Below, one piece after another: positions 4,339-14,182 of a DNA stretch of 35,210 bases. The stretch is taken from assembly GCA_028866655.1 (NCBI GenBank), contig JAGWHQ010000015.1, positions 1 to 35,210 of the forward strand, given 5' to 3'. The notes under the pieces were generated by a model. The model worked only from the letters and a program-made list of their open reading frames with translations, was not told the DNA's origin and did no database searches. Position numbers and translations under genes: made by a program. Position 1 is the first letter of the stretch. Every line of letters starts with the position of its first letter. Source of the DNA: Nitrososphaerota archaeon (GTDB lineage Archaea; Thermoproteota; Nitrososphaeria; Nitrososphaerales; Nitrosopumilaceae).

Positions 4339-5829
4339 TTAAATTTGTATATCTAATGTCTTGAGAATATTTGCTGTGAGATCATAGATGCGTATTAGAT
4401 GATTATTGGTATCTGCAATGTACAGCTTGTCTTGGTATAATTTTACATCACTTGGCTCGTATAGTCCTAATGTGTCGCAGCTTGGATCATCCAACCTGCA
4501 TGATGTACTCGTGCCTTGTTTTCCAATTAGTGTCTCAACTGAATCGTTATCTTGATCAATTACTCTAATTGAAGAATTGTAAGTATCTGCCACAAATATT
4601 TTGTTTGCAGTTGCACACAATCCTAATGGGTGCTGAAATAATGCCTCACCGGTTTTACCGTCCTTGTGTCCAAATGCAAATAATCCATGACCTACAATAG
4701 TTCTGATATATTCTGTCTTGAGATCTATCTCTCGGACAGATGATGTTTCACTGTCTACAAAGTATACTATGTCATCATGGATGAAAACTCCGCTTGGTTG
4801 TGCAAGCTGTGCTTGCATCCTGTTACCGTCGATGATGTCTTCTTGACCATTTCCTGCAAAAGGTCTTGCCATCTCAGTATTGATGTCATATGTCCATATC
4901 TGATGATTTCCTGCCATTGTGATAAAGATCAAGTTGTCTTTTACTGCAACATCCCATGGGGATGAAATTGCAATATCTTTTCCTTTACCGCCTGCTGATC
5001 TCCATGGGCCTTGTTTTCCTGTTCCAACAAGTGTAGTGACTTGGTTGTTTTGCAAATCTATTTTTCGCAATGCATGGTTTTCTGTGTCTGCAACAAAAAT
5101 AAAATCATCTTTCCATGAAACCCCTTGAGGTCTAAAAAATATGGCATCTGAAAATCTACCATCCGCTAGACCTGCCTTGCCACTTCCAATGGTATGTAAT
5201 ATTCTGCCTGCAAGATCAGTTACAATGACTCGGTTGTGGTTCGAGTCAGATATGGCAATCCTATCTTTTGATATTGATATCTTGCCTGGAAAAGATAATG
5301 CTGTGTTGCTCTTCTTGATGGTTTTTACAATCTTGATTGGCTCTCTTGCCAATGTGTGAGATTTTTCATGTTTTTCCAAAAGAACATCAATTGTATCCTC
5401 TACCATCTCCTTTTGTCCCTCACCAGACTGTCTGTATACTAGAATTCCATTGGGATCAATTATGGTAATGGTGGGCCAACCACTAATTCCAAACTTGTTC
5501 CAGACAGTCATTTTCCTGTCTACAAGTACTGGATGTGATATCTCGTATCTTTCTACTGCCTGCTCGATATTTTTCATATCTTGCTCATTGAAAAATTTTG
5601 CAGAATGTACTCCTATGAATACAACTGGCATGTCTTTGTATTTTTCTTCAAGTTCTGCAAGTACTGGTAGCGTATGCATGCAATTTATGCAACAATAAGT
5701 CCAAAAATCTAGTACGATGACATGACCCTTGAGTTTTTCAAGAGAGAGTGGCTCTTTTGTATTGACCCAATCAAACTCTGAAGGAAACTCTGGTGCCTTG
5801 GTAACTTTGGAAAATATGTTATCAAACAT
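4339..5829 (-). CDS. Thioredoxin-like domain fused to NHL beta-propeller (NHLRC2-type)
   Basis: The 496-aa protein joins two modules. Residues about 20-155 are a TlpA/AhpC-type thioredoxin fold: VLDFWTYCCINCMHTLP holds the redox pair Cys47-x-x-Cys50 plus an extra Cys46, and the cis-Pro loop is GWPTITIID. Residues about 175-490 are a six-bladed NHL propeller with repeated units of the type GRFSDAIFFRPQGV...VADTENHALRKIDL, LAQPSGVFI...VDSETSSVREID and YEPSDVKL...ADTNNHLIRIYDL. The same architecture occurs in animal NHLRC2 and many bacterial proteins; the substrate is generally unknown, but a disulfide or redox role with propeller-mediated binding is likely. No signal peptide is seen, so it should be cytoplasmic. 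It is divergent from the zinc-finger gene across 99 nt. Confidence 0.88.
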   Translation of the reverse strand: MFDNIFSKVTKAPEFPSEFDWVNTKEPLSLEKLKGHVIVLDFWTYCCINCMHTLPVLAELEEKYKDMPVVFIGVHSAKFFNEQDMKNIEQAVERYEISHPVLVDRKMTVWNKFGISGWPTITIIDPNGILVYRQSGEGQKEMVEDTIDVLLEKHEKSHTLAREPIKIVKTIKKSNTALSFPGKISISKDRIAISDSNHNRVIVTDLAGRILHTIGSGKAGLADGRFSDAIFFRPQGVSWKDDFIFVADTENHALRKIDLQNNQVTTLVGTGKQGPWRSAGGKGKDIAISSPWDVAVKDNLIFITMAGNHQIWTYDINTEMARPFAGNGQEDIIDGNRMQAQLAQPSGVFIHDDIVYFVDSETSSVREIDLKTEYIRTIVGHGLFAFGHKDGKTGEALFQHPLGLCATANKIFVADTYNSSIRVIDQDNDSVETLIGKQGTSTSCRLDDPSCDTLGLYEPSDVKLYQDKLYIADTNNHLIRIYDLTANILKTLDIQI

Positions 5830-9363: not shown

Positions 9364-10917
9364 TTACTCTATTGTAACACTGATGTACTTTGATACTGTA
9401 ACATCTTGATATCTTGCACTTATCAAGACCTCATACGTTCCTGGCGTTGCAAAGTTGTCTGCTGTTATTCCAACTTTGACAGTTTGTGGCGCATTTGTTG
9501 TAACTTGGGTCTGTTGTGCCTTGACTGAAATGGTCTGAGATCCTACAGTACTTGATGTGATGATGGATACTGGGGAACTGAGTTGTTCTTGTGGGTTTAT
9601 GCCAAACAAAACTGTTGCATTTTGCCCGTGATGTATGGTGATTGAAGAATCTGATGCAGTCACGTTAATTGGAAGTGGAACACTAGGATCCAATACTCCA
9701 ATGTTGTTTTCAACCCATTCTGAGAACCATATCTTGTTGTGGTTTACTGTAAAGTCCAATATCTGAGCCACTCCACAGTCTGATGAGGGTGCACAATCTG
9801 ACCAGTTGGGATTCTTGGATGGAACTTCATACTCTACAAGAGAGTGTGCTGATGGATCATATACTCCAAAACTGTTTGCAACTTGTTCGTTGAACCATAA
9901 TCTTCCGTTGTCATCAAAATGATCCCAATATGGTCTTGATATTGGTGTCTTAATGAGTCCTGATGCATTACCATATGATGATACTGGTGGAGGAGAAGTT
10001 GTGTGCTTGGTGAATTTTTTACTTGCAGGATCAAAATCAAAAAAGTAACTACTTGCAGTATCCATTATCCATAACTTTCCTGAAGAGTCGATTGTTATTC
10101 CATTTGGTGCTTGGATGTCTTGAGGTAAAGGATATTGTGTAGAACTACCTGTTTTTTGGTCATAGCTTACAAGATTTCCTCCCTGTTGGTATATCCAAGT
10201 TGTATACCACAACTTTCCTGAAGGATCAGTAACCATTGAACTTGTAAAGTTGTTATTGCCAGGAGCTGGGATGCTAGTCATGCCCATATCTGGACTTGTA
10301 TTATCTGTAGAAAATACTCCAATCTTTCTTCCAGTGAAATCATTGATGTAAGCATTTTTGCCATCTATTAGTAACATCTGTGGGAAAGAACCATCTGATG
10401 AGTTACTCTTGGGGAATACAAATCTTTGATAGCTCTTGTCTACTGGATTGAATTTCCAGATCAAACTATGTTGTGAATCTGTAATCCAAATGTTTCCATC
10501 TTGTGCAGTACCAAGTCCCCACATCATGGATTTTTCTCCACTTTGCCATTGTGAATTGGTAAATTCTTGGAATGATTTTGAAGATGGGTCAAACTTGCCA
10601 AGGTTTCCTGTATTTGATTCTGTAAACCAAACATTACCTGACGAGTCTACCATTACTGCAAGCGGTTGGGTACATGCTGTAGGTATTTTGTATTCTGTTA
10701 TGTAGTTGCTTGATTTTGCTGGACCTGTCTGACAAAATGTTGGTCTGTCCTTGTCTTTGTAATTGTCTTGAGGTGTTCCAGTGATTGTTCTATCTGTAGT
10801 GGTGGTATTGACTTGGTTTGCAACCCTACCTCCTCCTAGAAATGCAACACTTACTGTAGAAACGATGAAAATTGCCATAAATGATAGTGCAAGAAGCTTT
10901 TTGGTATTCTTGTTCAT
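9364..10917 (-). CDS. Membrane-anchored Vgb/SMP-30-like beta-propeller protein
   Basis: The 517-aa protein has one N-terminal hydrophobic segment (about 8-28, signal anchor) and then an extracytoplasmic beta-propeller made of repeated blades such as ITEYKIPTACTQPLAVMVDSSGNVWFTES, NIWITDSQHSLIWKFNP and GKLWIMDTASSYFFDFDP. This is the virginiamycin B lyase-like / streptogramin-lyase repeat; most members are not antibiotic lyases and their activity is unknown. After the propeller a C-terminal beta-sandwich (about 415-517) starts NVTASDSSITIHHGQN and ends with strands like TPGTYEVLISARYQDVTVSKYISV, resembling an Ig/NEW3-type domain. There are four Cys in the propeller, including Cys-Ala-Pro and Asp-Cys pairs that could form a disulfide. 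It lies just upstream of truD and 69 nt downstream of the artubulin operon. Confidence 0.8.
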   Translation of the reverse strand: MNKNTKKLLALSFMAIFIVSTVSVAFLGGGRVANQVNTTTTDRTITGTPQDNYKDKDRPTFCQTGPAKSSNYITEYKIPTACTQPLAVMVDSSGNVWFTESNTGNLGKFDPSSKSFQEFTNSQWQSGEKSMMWGLGTAQDGNIWITDSQHSLIWKFNPVDKSYQRFVFPKSNSSDGSFPQMLLIDGKNAYINDFTGRKIGVFSTDNTSPDMGMTSIPAPGNNNFTSSMVTDPSGKLWYTTWIYQQGGNLVSYDQKTGSSTQYPLPQDIQAPNGITIDSSGKLWIMDTASSYFFDFDPASKKFTKHTTSPPPVSSYGNASGLIKTPISRPYWDHFDDNGRLWFNEQVANSFGVYDPSAHSLVEYEVPSKNPNWSDCAPSSDCGVAQILDFTVNHNKIWFSEWVENNIGVLDPSVPLPINVTASDSSITIHHGQNATVLFGINPQEQLSSPVSIITSSTVGSQTISVKAQQTQVTTNAPQTVKVGITADNFATPGTYEVLISARYQDVTVSKYISVTIE

Positions 10918-10986: not shown

Positions 10987-11532
10987 TTATTTTCTCTTGA
11001 TTGATAAGGTCTTTTGAACTTCATTCATACTGCTAAGGAATTTTTGTTTGGCTTCATATTCGTCTGTTACCTTGATTGTTATCTCAGAGGCTGCGAACAT
11101 TACATCCTTGACAAGTATTGGTGGGGATAGCCCCAAAAGTTCGCTTAGTATTGTCAATATGTTGTTAAAAACTGCATTATTTTTATAGTGAAATATGGTA
11201 TTACCGTCTGCAACCTTTGGGTTTGGCTCTAGAGGGATGACTAGATCATGTGAAGTAAATTCTGTTATAAATAATGCAATGTCTTCTTTTATCTTTGTAC
11301 TAAGATCTTCTTTTTGTGCAATTAGCTTTTCTTTTGCTTTTTCCAAATCCACAGATGCATCGTAATAATCTTGACCTATCATTTTTGCAAACGTGGATTC
11401 GGTTGGACTCTTCAGTGGAATTTCATGAATTCTAAAATTCACTGTTGCAAGCTCATCTTCTGTATCTTTTAGCTGTGTTCTATTTTCTTTAATGCGTGTT
11501 GCAACCTGCTCCAGAAAGGCAAAGTCAGACAT
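10987..11532 (-). CDS. Coiled-coil protein encoded directly downstream of the tubulin-like GTPase
   Basis: I recognise no family. The 181-aa soluble protein has two long helices with heptad-like spacing (residues about 5-35, QVATRIKENRTQLKDTEDEL; and about 58-90, DASVDLEKAKEKLIAQKEDL), which could form an antiparallel coiled coil. A compact alpha/beta part follows (about 95-160), then a last basic helix (about 160-181, ending SIKRK). It has no signal peptide and no cysteine. Its ATG lies only 2 nt after the stop of the tubulin-like gene at 11535-12923, so the pair is almost surely one operon. That makes it a candidate partner, regulator or cargo adaptor of the filament; this is inference from context only. 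Confidence 0.75.
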   Translation of the reverse strand: MSDFAFLEQVATRIKENRTQLKDTEDELATVNFRIHEIPLKSPTESTFAKMIGQDYYDASVDLEKAKEKLIAQKEDLSTKIKEDIALFITEFTSHDLVIPLEPNPKVADGNTIFHYKNNAVFNNILTILSELLGLSPPILVKDVMFAASEITIKVTDEYEAKQKFLSSMNEVQKTLSIKRK

Positions 11533-11534
11533 TT

Positions 11535-12923
11535 CTAGCTAAACTCATGGACTACATCCATAAGGCTTGCCTTGAATTCTTCTGTAGTCAATCCCCACTT
11601 GCCATATTCATCTTTGAATGCATCCCATGAAGCTTCTGCTTCACTTGCAATCTCCAAAATCTTTGTTCCTATTGCTTTTGTATTAACAAGTATTGTAATA
11701 TTTGCTTGTTCTGTTTCTAGAATTGGAATCTTGATGAATATCATTCTTGATTCCTCAATGTGGAATCTGTCCTTTATGATATTCTTTAGAGTATCTCTTT
11801 CTTTTGCTTCGAAATCTCCTTTTACTTTAACAAGTACACAACAAGAATCTCTTGGGCCTCCCTTGTCTCTTATGTCATTTTCATCAATATCAAACAATAC
11901 TGCATCTTCTTTCTTGTTGATGTGTTCTACTATTCCTTCCATGGTGTTACCCTTAGTTCCTGCCATCAAGTCAGAGTTCCATTGTCTTTCTTCTGGAATA
12001 ACTGGAATTACCCAAGTAACTGCAAATCTTGGTCTCTTTGTTGCAAGCCATGTTCTATAGTTTGACATGTCCCATTCTGTCTCTCTTGCAAAAGATGCAA
12101 TAAACATGGAGATTGCATTTGCTGCAATCAAGTTCATTCCTCTGTAATCCTTCCAACCTACTTCGTGTTCCTTTGGAAGATCATCTATGATTGAGGACAT
12201 TTTGTCTAACCTCTTTTCATGTTTCTGTGCAAGTTCTCTTAGTCTTTTATTTGAAAATAATATCGAGCAGTCACTGTATTTTATCTGGTGTTCTAGATTC
12301 ATCACGATGTTGATTGCAGATGCTTCTAGAATTACTGGATCCCATCCGAATTCTGGTAATAACCCAAATGATGCAATTGTTGCATGTTCTTTTGTGTCCT
12401 TTTTGATATATTGCATAAATGCACTTGCAAAAGAAGCACCTGTACCACCGCCCATTGCAAATGGAATTGTAAAGCCTCTTACTGGTTCTGGGGAAAGACT
12501 TGAGAGTTGTTTCTGCATGTCGTACTTTGTACTTACTTCTTTGATGAATCTTGTACGACCTTCTGCCCAGTTTCTGGCAGCACCCCCTGCGCCAGAAATT
12601 ACATGCTTGTCTCTTAGGGCAAACAAGTCTGGATATGATTGTAAAATCAAGTTGGCAGCTCTTGGGTCTAGATCAATTAAGAGTGCTCTTGGAATAAGTG
12701 GAATTTCACTTCCACCGTATGCATTTGGAAATCGTAAGATTGTACTTCCGTATCTTTTGAGTATGCGGGATTCATCTTTTTCGCCCTTTAATGTTGGCTT
12801 TAATGGATCTGCTCCAACATCAATCAATAGTCTTCGATATGATTCTGCACCAAGACCAATTCCACAGTGACCAAAACATGTCATGATAACCGGGGCTGGT
12901 GGTAATGGGTCGAATTTTGACAA
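11535..12923 (-). CDS. Tubulin-superfamily GTPase, artubulin-like
   Basis: The 462-aa protein is a tubulin/FtsZ-superfamily GTPase whose motifs match eukaryotic tubulin more closely than FtsZ or CetZ. The T1 loop is GHCGIGLGAE (18-27; tubulin GQCGNQIGAE). IPRALLIDLDP (77-87) matches tubulin VPRAILVDLEP. GAGGAARNWAEG (111-122) matches GAGNNWAKG. The signature GGGTGAS (158-164) matches GGGTGSG. The ribose/base region 185-232, with its SNKRL turn, follows the tubulin DNEAL region. The C-terminal domain (300-462) is full length. By hand alignment the T7 position of the catalytic Glu254 of alpha-tubulin is Asn288. The TTG start is the only upstream option, because an in-frame stop lies two codons before it. 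Its message continues into the coiled-coil gene. Artubulins are known from Nitrosoarchaeum; a divergent thaumarchaeal FtsZ-like protein is the alternative. It probably forms a cytoskeletal filament. Confidence 0.85.
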   Translation of the reverse strand: MSKFDPLPPAPVIMTCFGHCGIGLGAESYRRLLIDVGADPLKPTLKGEKDESRILKRYGSTILRFPNAYGGSEIPLIPRALLIDLDPRAANLILQSYPDLFALRDKHVISGAGGAARNWAEGRTRFIKEVSTKYDMQKQLSSLSPEPVRGFTIPFAMGGGTGASFASAFMQYIKKDTKEHATIASFGLLPEFGWDPVILEASAINIVMNLEHQIKYSDCSILFSNKRLRELAQKHEKRLDKMSSIIDDLPKEHEVGWKDYRGMNLIAANAISMFIASFARETEWDMSNYRTWLATKRPRFAVTWVIPVIPEERQWNSDLMAGTKGNTMEGIVEHINKKEDAVLFDIDENDIRDKGGPRDSCCVLVKVKGDFEAKERDTLKNIIKDRFHIEESRMIFIKIPILETEQANITILVNTKAIGTKILEIASEAEASWDAFKDEYGKWGLTTEEFKASLMDVVHEFS

Positions 12924-13071: not shown

Positions 13072-13371
13072 TTATCCTTCTTCTGTTAGAGCTTGTTTGA
13101 GTACGCGAAATTCTTCTATTGATATCTGTCCTTCTGCAAGTCTAATTCGGAGAAGTTCAATTGATGTATCTTTTTTGGGTGAAGGTGTGACTCGAGGTTG
13201 TTCTACTTCTGTATTGTTTGCTGATTCTAGCAAGTCATGGATGTATCTATAATCTGACATTACAATTGGCTCATCATTTTTTACAGTCTCCATTATTTCT
13301 CGCAGCCTCTTTGGGTTTCCCTTACCTGCTGCAAGCAAACTCTTGATTGTTTTTAGCATATCTTCTGACAT
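13072..13371 (-). CDS. Small SHOCT-domain protein with an N-terminal module shared with another protein
   Basis: The 99-aa protein has three parts. Residues 1-52 form a helical module starting MSEDMLKTI. Residues 53-68 are a Pro/Thr-rich linker. Residues about 70-97 match the SHOCT type (LRIRLAEGQISIEEFRVLKQAL), a short two-helix oligomerisation-like domain usually found at protein ends. The first 52 residues align without gaps, with 20 identities, to the start of the membrane protein at 24310-25068. It begins 1 nt after the stop of the TPR gene, so the two form an operon; the tubulin-like gene follows on the same strand after 148 nt that contain a possible promoter of its own. Probably an adaptor or assembly protein; function unknown. 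Confidence 0.75.
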   Translation of the reverse strand: MSEDMLKTIKSLLAAGKGNPKRLREIMETVKNDEPIVMSDYRYIHDLLESANNTEVEQPRVTPSPKKDTSIELLRIRLAEGQISIEEFRVLKQALTEEG

Positions 13372-13372
13372 T

Positions 13373-14182
13373 TTATTTCACTATTGTTTTGAACCTTGAA
13401 TCCCCTTTTATCATATCGAATGCTGAATCCTTAATGGCCCAGTTTTTTATGGTTTTGCCATAATAAGATATTGCCTGTGCTAGAAGAATTAAAGAATCAT
13501 CATTTTGTCTCATTTGGGCTTTGCTTCTTGCCTTTGCGTAAATCACTGTACCATTTTTTGGAAACTCTTTTAGTATTTTATCAAAGATTATGATTGCTTC
13601 GTCATGTCTACCAAGCTCAGATAGTTCCGTTGCCTTGTAAAATATCGCCTCATTGTTTTCCGGCTCTTTTTCTAAAATTTTATCAAAATATGATAGTGCT
13701 TCTTCGTGTTTTTTTTGCTTGCCAAGAACTAGTCCCTTGTAGTGTATCGCCTGCATGTTTTCCGGTTCTTTCTCAAGTACTTTATTCAAACAATCTATGG
13801 CGTCATCATACTTTTCAAGCCTGATTGATGTAATTCCTTTATTGTATAATGCTGGGAGATATCCTGGATCATTTGATAATGCCTTGTCATAATATGTAAC
13901 TGCTTTTTCAAACTGTTGCAACTCTGCAGAATGGTTTCCTAGGTTGTTTAATGCATCAACATGGTTGGGATCATATTCTGTTATTTTCTCAAAGCATGAT
14001 ATTGCATCCTTTATTTTCTTTAATTTCAATAAAGACATTCCTTTGTTGTATAATGCGTCTACGTTTTTTGCATCTTGTTTTAGCGCCTTGTCGAAAAATG
14101 ATATTGCATCCTTGTGTTTTTCAAGCTTGGCATAGCTTATTCCTTCTAAAACTGTTCTTTCTGTTTGACTTTTTTCACTCAT
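13373..14182 (-). CDS. TPR-repeat protein
   Basis: The 269-aa soluble protein consists of about six tetratricopeptide repeats (roughly 9-42, 43-76, 77-110, 111-144, 145-178, 179-212). They show the usual W/L-G-Y-A-F-A-P positions, for example YNKGMSLLKLKKIKDAISCF, NNLGNHSAELQQFEKAVTYY and HYKGLVLGKQKKHEEALSYF. A non-repeat helical cap follows (213-269). TPR arrays are protein-docking scaffolds. There is no signal peptide or membrane segment, so it is cytosolic. It is the first gene of a tight pair with the SHOCT protein and lies upstream of the tubulin-like operon on the same strand, which makes a common assembly plausible but unproven. Confidence 0.88.
   Translation of the reverse strand: MSEKSQTERTVLEGISYAKLEKHKDAISFFDKALKQDAKNVDALYNKGMSLLKLKKIKDAISCFEKITEYDPNHVDALNNLGNHSAELQQFEKAVTYYDKALSNDPGYLPALYNKGITSIRLEKYDDAIDCLNKVLEKEPENMQAIHYKGLVLGKQKKHEEALSYFDKILEKEPENNEAIFYKATELSELGRHDEAIIIFDKILKEFPKNGTVIYAKARSKAQMRQNDDSLILLAQAISYYGKTIKNWAIKDSAFDMIKGDSRFKTIVK

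What the first reader, a model, noticed from the sequence alone, without database searches (positions are those of the whole stretch)
11535..12923. A eukaryote-like tubulin (artubulin) in a thaumarchaeal chromosome
The protein carries tubulin-type rather than FtsZ-type motifs: GHCGIGLGAE, IPRALLIDLDP, GAGGAARNWAEG and GGGTGAS, plus the tubulin-like spacing of the base-binding region and a full C-terminal domain. The Asn-Trp-Ala-x-Gly and Pro-Arg-Ala-hydrophobic-Asp-Leu-x-Pro blocks are not found in FtsZ or CetZ. Artubulins are established for Nitrosoarchaeum and tubulins for Odinarchaeia, but they are rare, and their role beside the Cdv division system is unclear. A copy with readable operon context is valuable for the origin of tubulin.
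Basis: partly seen in the sequence, partly recalled or inferred. Interest (0 to 1): 0.9.

Follow-up and report, generated by a model that had tools for sequence, protein, structure and literature searches.

The report
Archaeal tubulin with a constant partner
The gene is a real artubulin, a known archaeal relative of the protein that builds our microtubules, and comparison across related genomes shows that it is regularly followed by a second, unstudied coiled-coil gene that may help it work.

Summary
The reading is right: window 11535-12923, on the MINUS strand, encodes a 462-aa artubulin in a Nitrosotalea-like archaeon. Pfam Tubulin E 3.9e-16; best PDB sequence matches are Asgard tubulins; the predicted fold matches tubulins over its whole length. 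Grouping with FtsZ or CetZ is rejected (AU p 0.0004-0.01), but sister to all tubulins or nested inside stays open, as in print. The family is known (2012), so this is a new member of a known kind. It is less rare than stated: 87 of 400 sampled genomes of the class, 16 of 82 genera, including two families without detected amoA. New here: (1) the gene 2 bp downstream (10987-11532), a 181-aa helical-hairpin plus alpha/beta protein without a named family, follows artubulin in 75 of 80 named loci, the other five being contigs that end there, and is present in all 87 artubulin genomes, while other neighbours change; the published Snf7 (ESCRT-III) neighbour is confined to one genus group; (2) the T7 loop is nearly invariant (ETEWDMSNYRTW) but the catalytic Glu/Asp position is Asn in 36 of 37. 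I propose a slow-hydrolysing, stable filament organised by the partner. Identity near certain; mechanism inferred.

The parts
11535..12923 (-). artubulin gene, 462 aa, TTG start, stop TAG
   Evidence: (Pfam Tubulin E 3.9e-16)
12843..12872 (-). T1-type nucleotide loop GHCGIGLGAE (aa 18-27); G18, H19, G21, G23, G25, A26, E27 invariant in 37 of 37
12558..12572 (-). tubulin-type NWAEG block (aa 118-122), invariant in 37 of 37
12432..12452 (-). glycine-rich GTP-binding T4 signature GGGTGAS (aa 158-164)
12045..12086 (-). T7 loop and start of helix H8: RETEWDMSNYRTWL (aa 280-293); the catalytic Glu/Asp position is Asn288
   Evidence: conservation; position between predicted helices 258-284 and 287-294; lined up with E. 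coli FtsZ NVDFADVRT
10987..11532 (-). partner gene, 181 aa: helical hairpin (4-51, 60-92) plus alpha/beta domain (about 105-180); 2 bp after the artubulin stop codon
   Evidence: distribution; structure, pLDDT 91.6; no significant fold match; no family
13072..13371 (-). upstream small protein, 99 aa, SHOCT-like C-terminus; lineage-specific context
   Evidence: (E 0.0015, below the cut-off)
13373..14182 (-). upstream TPR protein, 269 aa, same strand; its family is within six genes of artubulin in 11 of 39 loci, all in groups g1 and g5

Best explanation
The gene is an artubulin, a tubulin-family GTPase of the archaeal order around Nitrosopumilaceae, and it forms one inherited unit with the coiled-coil gene directly downstream. 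Likely mechanism: artubulin binds GTP (GGGTGxS, NWAEG and N/Y residues at the base-contact positions kept: shown by sequence), stacks head to tail through its nearly invariant T7 loop into protofilaments (inferred), and hydrolyses GTP slowly or not at all because the T7 loop offers Asp285 but Asn288 instead of the catalytic Glu/Asp (substitution shown, consequence inferred), giving stable filaments. The partner, probably co-transcribed (inferred from a gap of -20 to 18 bp in 36 measured loci), a helical hairpin with a small alpha/beta head, binds these filaments and cross-links or anchors them (inferred). In this draft genome it is the only tubulin-superfamily protein found with an intact GTP signature, since the resident FtsZ is degenerate. 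My estimates: identity as artubulin 0.97; dedicated functional pair 0.75; polymerises 0.7; slow hydrolysis 0.45.
For: Identity. Pair: partner directly downstream in 75 of 80 named loci; the five misses (L107, L109, L123, L133, L152) are contigs that end within artubulin or at most 142 bases after it. The same in 39 of 39 loci (the window and 38 from whole genomes) where the script called an artubulin ORF, 36 by BLAST family and three by translating the DNA; L057 and L064 were missed by the ORF picker and show the pair. All 87 artubulin genomes have the partner; in three of them (G225, G294, G283) the two genes lie on different contigs, each at a contig end. The next most common neighbour family is within six genes in 15 of 39 loci. 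In the families that have artubulin, partner without artubulin occurs in 4 genomes: two decayed relics (G087, G108), one frame-broken copy (G195), one contig end (G258). Pairwise distances of artubulin and partner correlate at 0.99, and at 0.94 after removing EF-2 (24 genomes). T7: E283, W284, D285, M286, S287 invariant in 37 of 37; position 288 is N in 36, S in 1, never acidic; lined up with NVDFAD of FtsZ. Role of E254 versus K254 in tubulin: PMC13394414, passages read. Two PF00091 matches in the genome, the other being the FtsZ with AGKSGA.
Against: No complex, filament or GTPase activity was tested. The artubulin model is only fair (mean pLDDT 74.3; the other four models 54-66). The FtsZ profile alignment as a whole has low probability (3.6%), so the T7 mapping rests on local agreement and position between two predicted helices. 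T7 is not the longest invariant run: GGAARNWAEG (113-122) is. Gene linkage gives correlated trees even without contact. Partner homologues live without artubulin in 6 genomes of family f2 and 29 of f3, with no tubulin in the 16 neighbourhoods read, so the partner can have another job. The loci share descent, and the named and unnamed sets overlap in species. Two artubulin copies (G120, G220) are N-terminally truncated beside an intact partner.
Confidence: 0.55

Rival explanations
1. Artubulin works with ESCRT-III (Snf7/CdvB) in cell division, as proposed by Yutin and Koonin from gene neighbourhood in Nitrosoarchaeum.
For: Snf7-type gene directly upstream in group g4 (PF03357 E 6e-7 for the L041 copy, the one scanned); g4 records are mostly titled Nitrosarchaeum, one Nitrosopumilus. 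The window's genome has weak Snf7 matches elsewhere, E 1.3e-5 and 0.0016, both under the family cut-off. Proposal read in PMC3349469.
Against: The Snf7-family neighbour occurs in 6 of 39 loci, all g4 (one further weak profile match in L039 is a polymerase-like gene). Other groups have SHOCT-like, Nre, zinc-ribbon-like or vWA genes there. PMC3835317 already noted its absence beside the N. uzonensis gene.
Confidence: 0.15
2. A divergent FtsZ or CetZ that only looks like tubulin.
For: Same superfamily; 16-20% identity to the tubulin matches; long branch.
Against: AU test rejects grouping with CetZ (p 0.0005), FtsZ (0.0004) and the genome's own FtsZ (0.010); tubulin-only residues; the 50 fold matches shown all come from tubulin or tubulin-complex entries.
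Confidence: 0.02
3. [quoted passage not shown]
For: Placement next to gamma-tubulin cannot be told from a basal one (AU p 0.66 and 0.53).
Against: Very long stem to tubulins (1.83 substitutions per site); deep split inside artubulins between f4+f9 and f1 that agrees with EF-2 in outline, so the family is old in these archaea.
Confidence: 0.05
4. A non-polymerising GTP sensor or switch that regulates the coiled-coil protein.
For: No acidic residue at the catalytic T7 position in 37 of 37; stable pairing with one small protein.
Against: T7/H8, which in relatives contacts the next subunit, is among the most conserved stretches, which suggests subunit-subunit contact.
Confidence: 0.15
5. A DNA-segregation filament like TubZ with the partner as adaptor.
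For: Filament plus small partner is the general layout of such systems (recalled).
Against: No DNA-binding family found in the partner; in chromosomes and mainly vertically inherited; no PHROG match below E 0.07 for either protein. TubZ itself was not compared.
Confidence: 0.06

Closest known systems
Artubulins of Nitrosoarchaeum and Nitrosotenuis uzonensis (PMC3349469, PMC3835317)
   Same: Same family: 75-80% identity to the window protein in loci titled Nitrosarchaeum and Nitrosotenuis; tubulin-specific residues.
   Different: Window copy is from Nitrosotalea; no Snf7 beside it; SHOCT-like and TPR genes upstream instead. The partner and the T7 substitution are not discussed in the parts I read.
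Asgard tubulins AtubA/B, Heimdall tubulins, OdinTubulin
   Same: Best PDB sequence matches (AtubA E 1e-16; Heimdall alpha 1.6e-21 by profile); same fold (TM to target 0.73 for AtubA, 0.78 for OdinTubulin).
   Different: 17-18% identity, very long branch, usually one gene copy, no acidic residue at the catalytic T7 position.
Prosthecobacter BtubA/B with the TPR protein bacterial kinesin light chain (BtubC)
   Same: Tubulin with a linked non-tubulin partner (figure legend of PMC3349469); a TPR gene lies two genes upstream of the window gene.
   Different: The TPR family is near artubulin in 11 of 39 loci only; the constant partner is a coiled-coil protein, not TPR.
Thaumarchaeal FtsZ-like protein (L002)
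   Same: Same superfamily and same genome.
   Different: GTP signature replaced by AGKSGA; the N. maritimus homologue lacks the motif and did not form polymers in yeast (PMC3684127, passages read).

Membership tests
Artubulin | Tubulin/FtsZ GTPase domain with tubulin-type residues absent from FtsZ | tested here: met
   (37 of 37 members match PF00091)
Artubulin | Clade with other thaumarchaeal artubulins, outside FtsZ and CetZ | tested here: met
   (53-98% identity)
Artubulin | Tubulin-like C-terminal domain | tested here: met
   predicted structure only
Artubulin | Snf7 (ESCRT-III) gene beside it (proposed association, not strictly defining) | tested here: not met
   not among the window genes scanned around it; 6 of 39 loci elsewhere
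Eukaryotic/Asgard tubulin sensu stricto | Nested inside the eukaryotic-Asgard tubulin clade | tested here: inconclusive
   sister and nested positions not distinguished
Eukaryotic/Asgard tubulin sensu stricto | Forms tubes (microtubules) | not testable with these tools
   needs electron microscopy
Catalytically competent tubulin/FtsZ T7 loop | Acidic residue at the E254 (alpha-tubulin) / D212 (FtsZ) position | tested here: not met
   N in 36, S in 1 of 37; mapping, the latter of low overall probability
FtsZ / CetZ | Tree placement in those clades | tested here: not met
   AU p at most 0.0104
TubZ | Tree placement with TubZ | not tested
   no TubZ sequence fetched; PMC9871819 (passages and section 8 read) argues against

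The most novel reading that the evidence does not exclude
Artubulin and its partner are an ancient two-protein cytoskeleton of this archaeal order, already side by side in the common ancestor of families f1, f4 and f9, in which a tubulin that has given up its catalytic T7 residue makes long-lived filaments bundled or anchored by a dedicated coiled-coil protein; where artubulin was lost (f2, f3) the partner survived alone.
Probability: 0.35. Interest if true: 0.78.

Novelty: new member of a known kind. Interest (0 to 1): 0.55.

Why it matters
Artubulins are a proposed link to the origin of tubulin, yet I found no functional study of them and their position in trees is unresolved. A constant genetic partner and one nearly invariant, apparently non-catalytic T7 loop turn the question into two direct experiments (co-purify the pair; measure GTPase and polymer lifetime). 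The gene occurs in Nitrosotalea devanaterra (record LN890280.1), a cultured organism (recalled). The result also argues against reading the Nitrosarchaeum Snf7 neighbourhood as the general functional link.

Tried and rejected
A hidden diverged tubulin beside the artubulin-free partner homologues: searched the ORFs of 20 fetched loci with the artubulin profile at E 10, no hit. A named family for the partner: only weak, scattered matches: Pfam best E 0.0019 in 1 of 16 members, NCBIfam best 0.00033 in 1 of 56 and an SMC-related model in 14 of 56 at best 0.0006, PHROGs 0.07, PDB sequences 0.00016 to a repeat chain of a C-type lectin and designed coiled coils, Foldseek 0.064, ZapB 0.001 below cut-off for an f2 homologue. 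These were not followed, as coiled coils attract such matches. CetZ through a plasmid search with an Asgard tubulin query: no match; one CetZ-type protein was then found on a Natronorubrum plasmid (annotated tubulin/FtsZ family protein, the name CetZ is mine from recall). Global hhalign gave nothing useful. Artubulin outside family f1 in a sample of 398 genomes of the phylum: none (23 matches, all f1).

Papers: PMC3349469 parts 1-3 of 5 read; PMC9871819 passages and section 8; PMC3835317, PMC13394414 and PMC3684127 passages; PMC7203096 searched, no passage in the held part; other papers only as listings. That the partner and the T7 substitution are not in print rests on searches of one open-access library; supplements and figures were not seen, and the gene marked conserved hypothetical in Figure 2B of PMC3349469 may be the partner.

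Full report
What is there. The open reading frame at 11535-12923 lies on the minus strand and encodes 462 aa. Pfam gives Tubulin (PF00091) at E 3.9e-16; the PDB sequence search gives Asgard tubulins first (AtubA 1e-16; with a profile of 17 artubulins, Heimdall alpha-tubulin 1.6e-21). The window genome is Nitrosotalea-like: the closest named locus is a Nitrosotalea record at 98% identity, and Nitrosotalea devanaterra has 94%.

Is it tubulin rather than FtsZ or CetZ? In a 20-sequence, 210-column alignment of the GTPase domain the artubulins and five tubulins share PRAxxxDLxP residues and a loop before them; the FtsZ and CetZ rows lack both. The branch between tubulins plus artubulins and FtsZ plus CetZ has support 100. 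Constrained trees joining artubulin with CetZ, with FtsZ, or with the genome's own FtsZ are rejected (AU p 0.0005, 0.0004, 0.010); sister to all tubulins, or next to gamma-tubulin, are both accepted (0.53, 0.66). This agrees with the unresolved position reported in PMC13394414 (passages). The AlphaFold2 model (mean pLDDT 74.3, pTM 0.82) has the GTPase domain, core helix 258-284, and C-terminal helices 420-441 and 447-461. All 50 fold matches shown come from tubulin or tubulin-complex entries, with TM to target up to 0.78 for OdinTubulin, over 470-493 alignment columns (the chain names themselves are not printed).

How widespread. In 400 genomes sampled from the class, a profile finds artubulin in 87, in 16 of 82 genera (86 by single-sequence search), in families coded f1, f4, f5 and f9. 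Contig sizes or match coordinates tie g1 to Nitrosotalea, g2 to Nitrosotenuis, g4 to Nitrosarchaeum, g7 to Nitrosopumilus and g10 to CSP1-1 as titled. amoA is found in 10 of 11 tested genomes of f1, f2, f3 and f5 (the miss is the window's own draft genome) and in 0 of 9 of f4 and f9, so artubulin is not tied to ammonia oxidation. A sample of 398 genomes of the phylum gave 23 matches, all f1. A scan of one genome per species for two exact peptides gave 85 relatives, of which the best 80 were kept and analysed.

The constant partner. In 39 loci with a called artubulin ORF, the same-strand gene directly downstream is in each case a protein of one family, 178-193 aa in the 36 loci where the script called it; three more were seen by translating the DNA. 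The gap in those 36 is -20 to 18 bp. Profiles run over 80 named loci found the partner in 75, and the other five are contigs that end within artubulin or at most 142 bases after it. The two sets overlap in species and are not independent. Other neighbours change: SHOCT-like and TPR genes (g1, g5), Nre (g2), Snf7 (g4), a zinc-ribbon-like gene (g7, g10), an AAA-associated domain (two of three f9 loci), vWA (6 of 7 f4 loci) (one copy of each was scanned). Over whole genomes the partner is found in 126 of 400: all 87 with artubulin, 6 of f2, 29 of f3, and 4 others in artubulin families, of which two are decayed remnants, one is frame-broken and one lies at a contig end. In three of the 87 the two genes lie on different contigs, at contig ends. 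In f2 the homologue is full-length (E 1e-32 to 1e-37) and lies beside a gene that reads as radical SAM (not scanned) in 6 of 6 loci; in f3 mainly the C-terminal part matches. No tubulin lies near in the 16 of these 35 loci that I read.

Shape of the partner. The model is confident (mean pLDDT 91.6): a helical hairpin (4-51, 60-92) followed by a strand-helix-strand-helix head. Foldseek finds no match below E 0.06, and Pfam, NCBIfam and PHROGs give no convincing family. It is, as far as these libraries go, an unnamed family.

History. EF-2 and artubulin trees agree that f4 and f9 belong together and apart from f1; f5 has two artubulin-partner pairs that sit near f1, whereas its EF-2 groups with f2, which suggests transfer. 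Artubulin and partner distances correlate at 0.99 (0.94 after removing EF-2; 0.86 within f1). Because the pair is adjacent in f1, f4 and f9, I infer that it was adjacent in their common ancestor; rooting was by midpoint only. Loss is visible: G087 and G108 keep partner fragments without artubulin, and G120 and G220 keep only the C-terminal 167 and 233 residues of artubulin beside an intact partner.

Mechanism. Residues 280-293 (RETEWDMSNYRTWL) are among the most conserved stretches: 280, 282-287 and 290-293 are invariant in 37 sequences; the longest invariant run is 113-122. They lie between predicted helices 258-284 and 287-294, where tubulin and FtsZ carry the T7 loop, and align with NVDFADVRT of E. 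coli FtsZ so that D285 matches the first catalytic-loop Asp and N288 the second acidic position (low overall probability). In tubulin that position is E254 in alpha, which completes the GTPase site, and K254 in beta, which prevents hydrolysis (PMC13394414). Artubulin has Asn in 36 and Ser in 1 of 37. I infer GTP-dependent assembly with slow or absent hydrolysis, unless Glu283 compensates. The genome's FtsZ has lost the GTP signature (AGKSGA), as reported for N. maritimus (PMC3684127, passages), so artubulin is the only apparent GTP-competent member in this 94.6%-complete draft (two PF00091 matches). The partner is best seen as a filament-binding coiled-coil cross-linker or anchor; this is inference.

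Against the reading. No biochemical evidence exists here; linkage need not mean contact; the partner family has an artubulin-free life in other families; the artubulin model is only fair. The published ESCRT-III link remains possible in Nitrosarchaeum but is not general: 6 of 39 loci.

Verdict. A correctly recognised artubulin, a new member of a known family; the added value is a two-gene unit and a testable catalytic oddity.

Noticed in passing
L051 (G120:C8) and L052 (G220:C41): Nitrosopumilus-group copies keep only the C-terminal part of artubulin (aa 296-462 and 230-462) with an intact partner; in L051 the divergent upstream gene also looks shortened at its start, as if one deletion removed both 5' ends.
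   Followed up: partly
L043 and L044 (G112, family f5): One genome with two artubulin-partner pairs on different contigs; EF-2 places the genome with f2, artubulin places it near f1.
   Followed up: partly
L056, L059-L063 (family f4): A von Willebrand factor A domain gene (PF00092, E 2.3e-8 in L060, the one scanned) lies divergently just upstream of artubulin.
   Followed up: partly
L002:1021-1974 (G000:C93): The genome's FtsZ-like protein has AGKSGA in place of GGGTGTG.
   Followed up: partly
L153-L158 (family f2): Artubulin-free partner homologue beside a gene that reads as radical SAM and near at least one divergent pilin- or archaellum-like gene, in all six f2 loci (by eye, not scanned).
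   Followed up: no
L213:384-1466 and 2100 onward: A CetZ-type gene of Natronorubrum is followed about 630 bp later by a gene annotated coiled-coil protein.
   Followed up: no
L105, L134: Artubulin loci in records titled Gammaproteobacteria bacterium and bacterium, probably mislabelled archaeal MAGs.
   Followed up: no
window 4339-5829 and 9364-10917: A protein that reads as thioredoxin-like followed by NHL-like repeats (not scanned), and an apparently exported Vgb-lyase-like beta-propeller, close to the artubulin pair.
   Followed up: no
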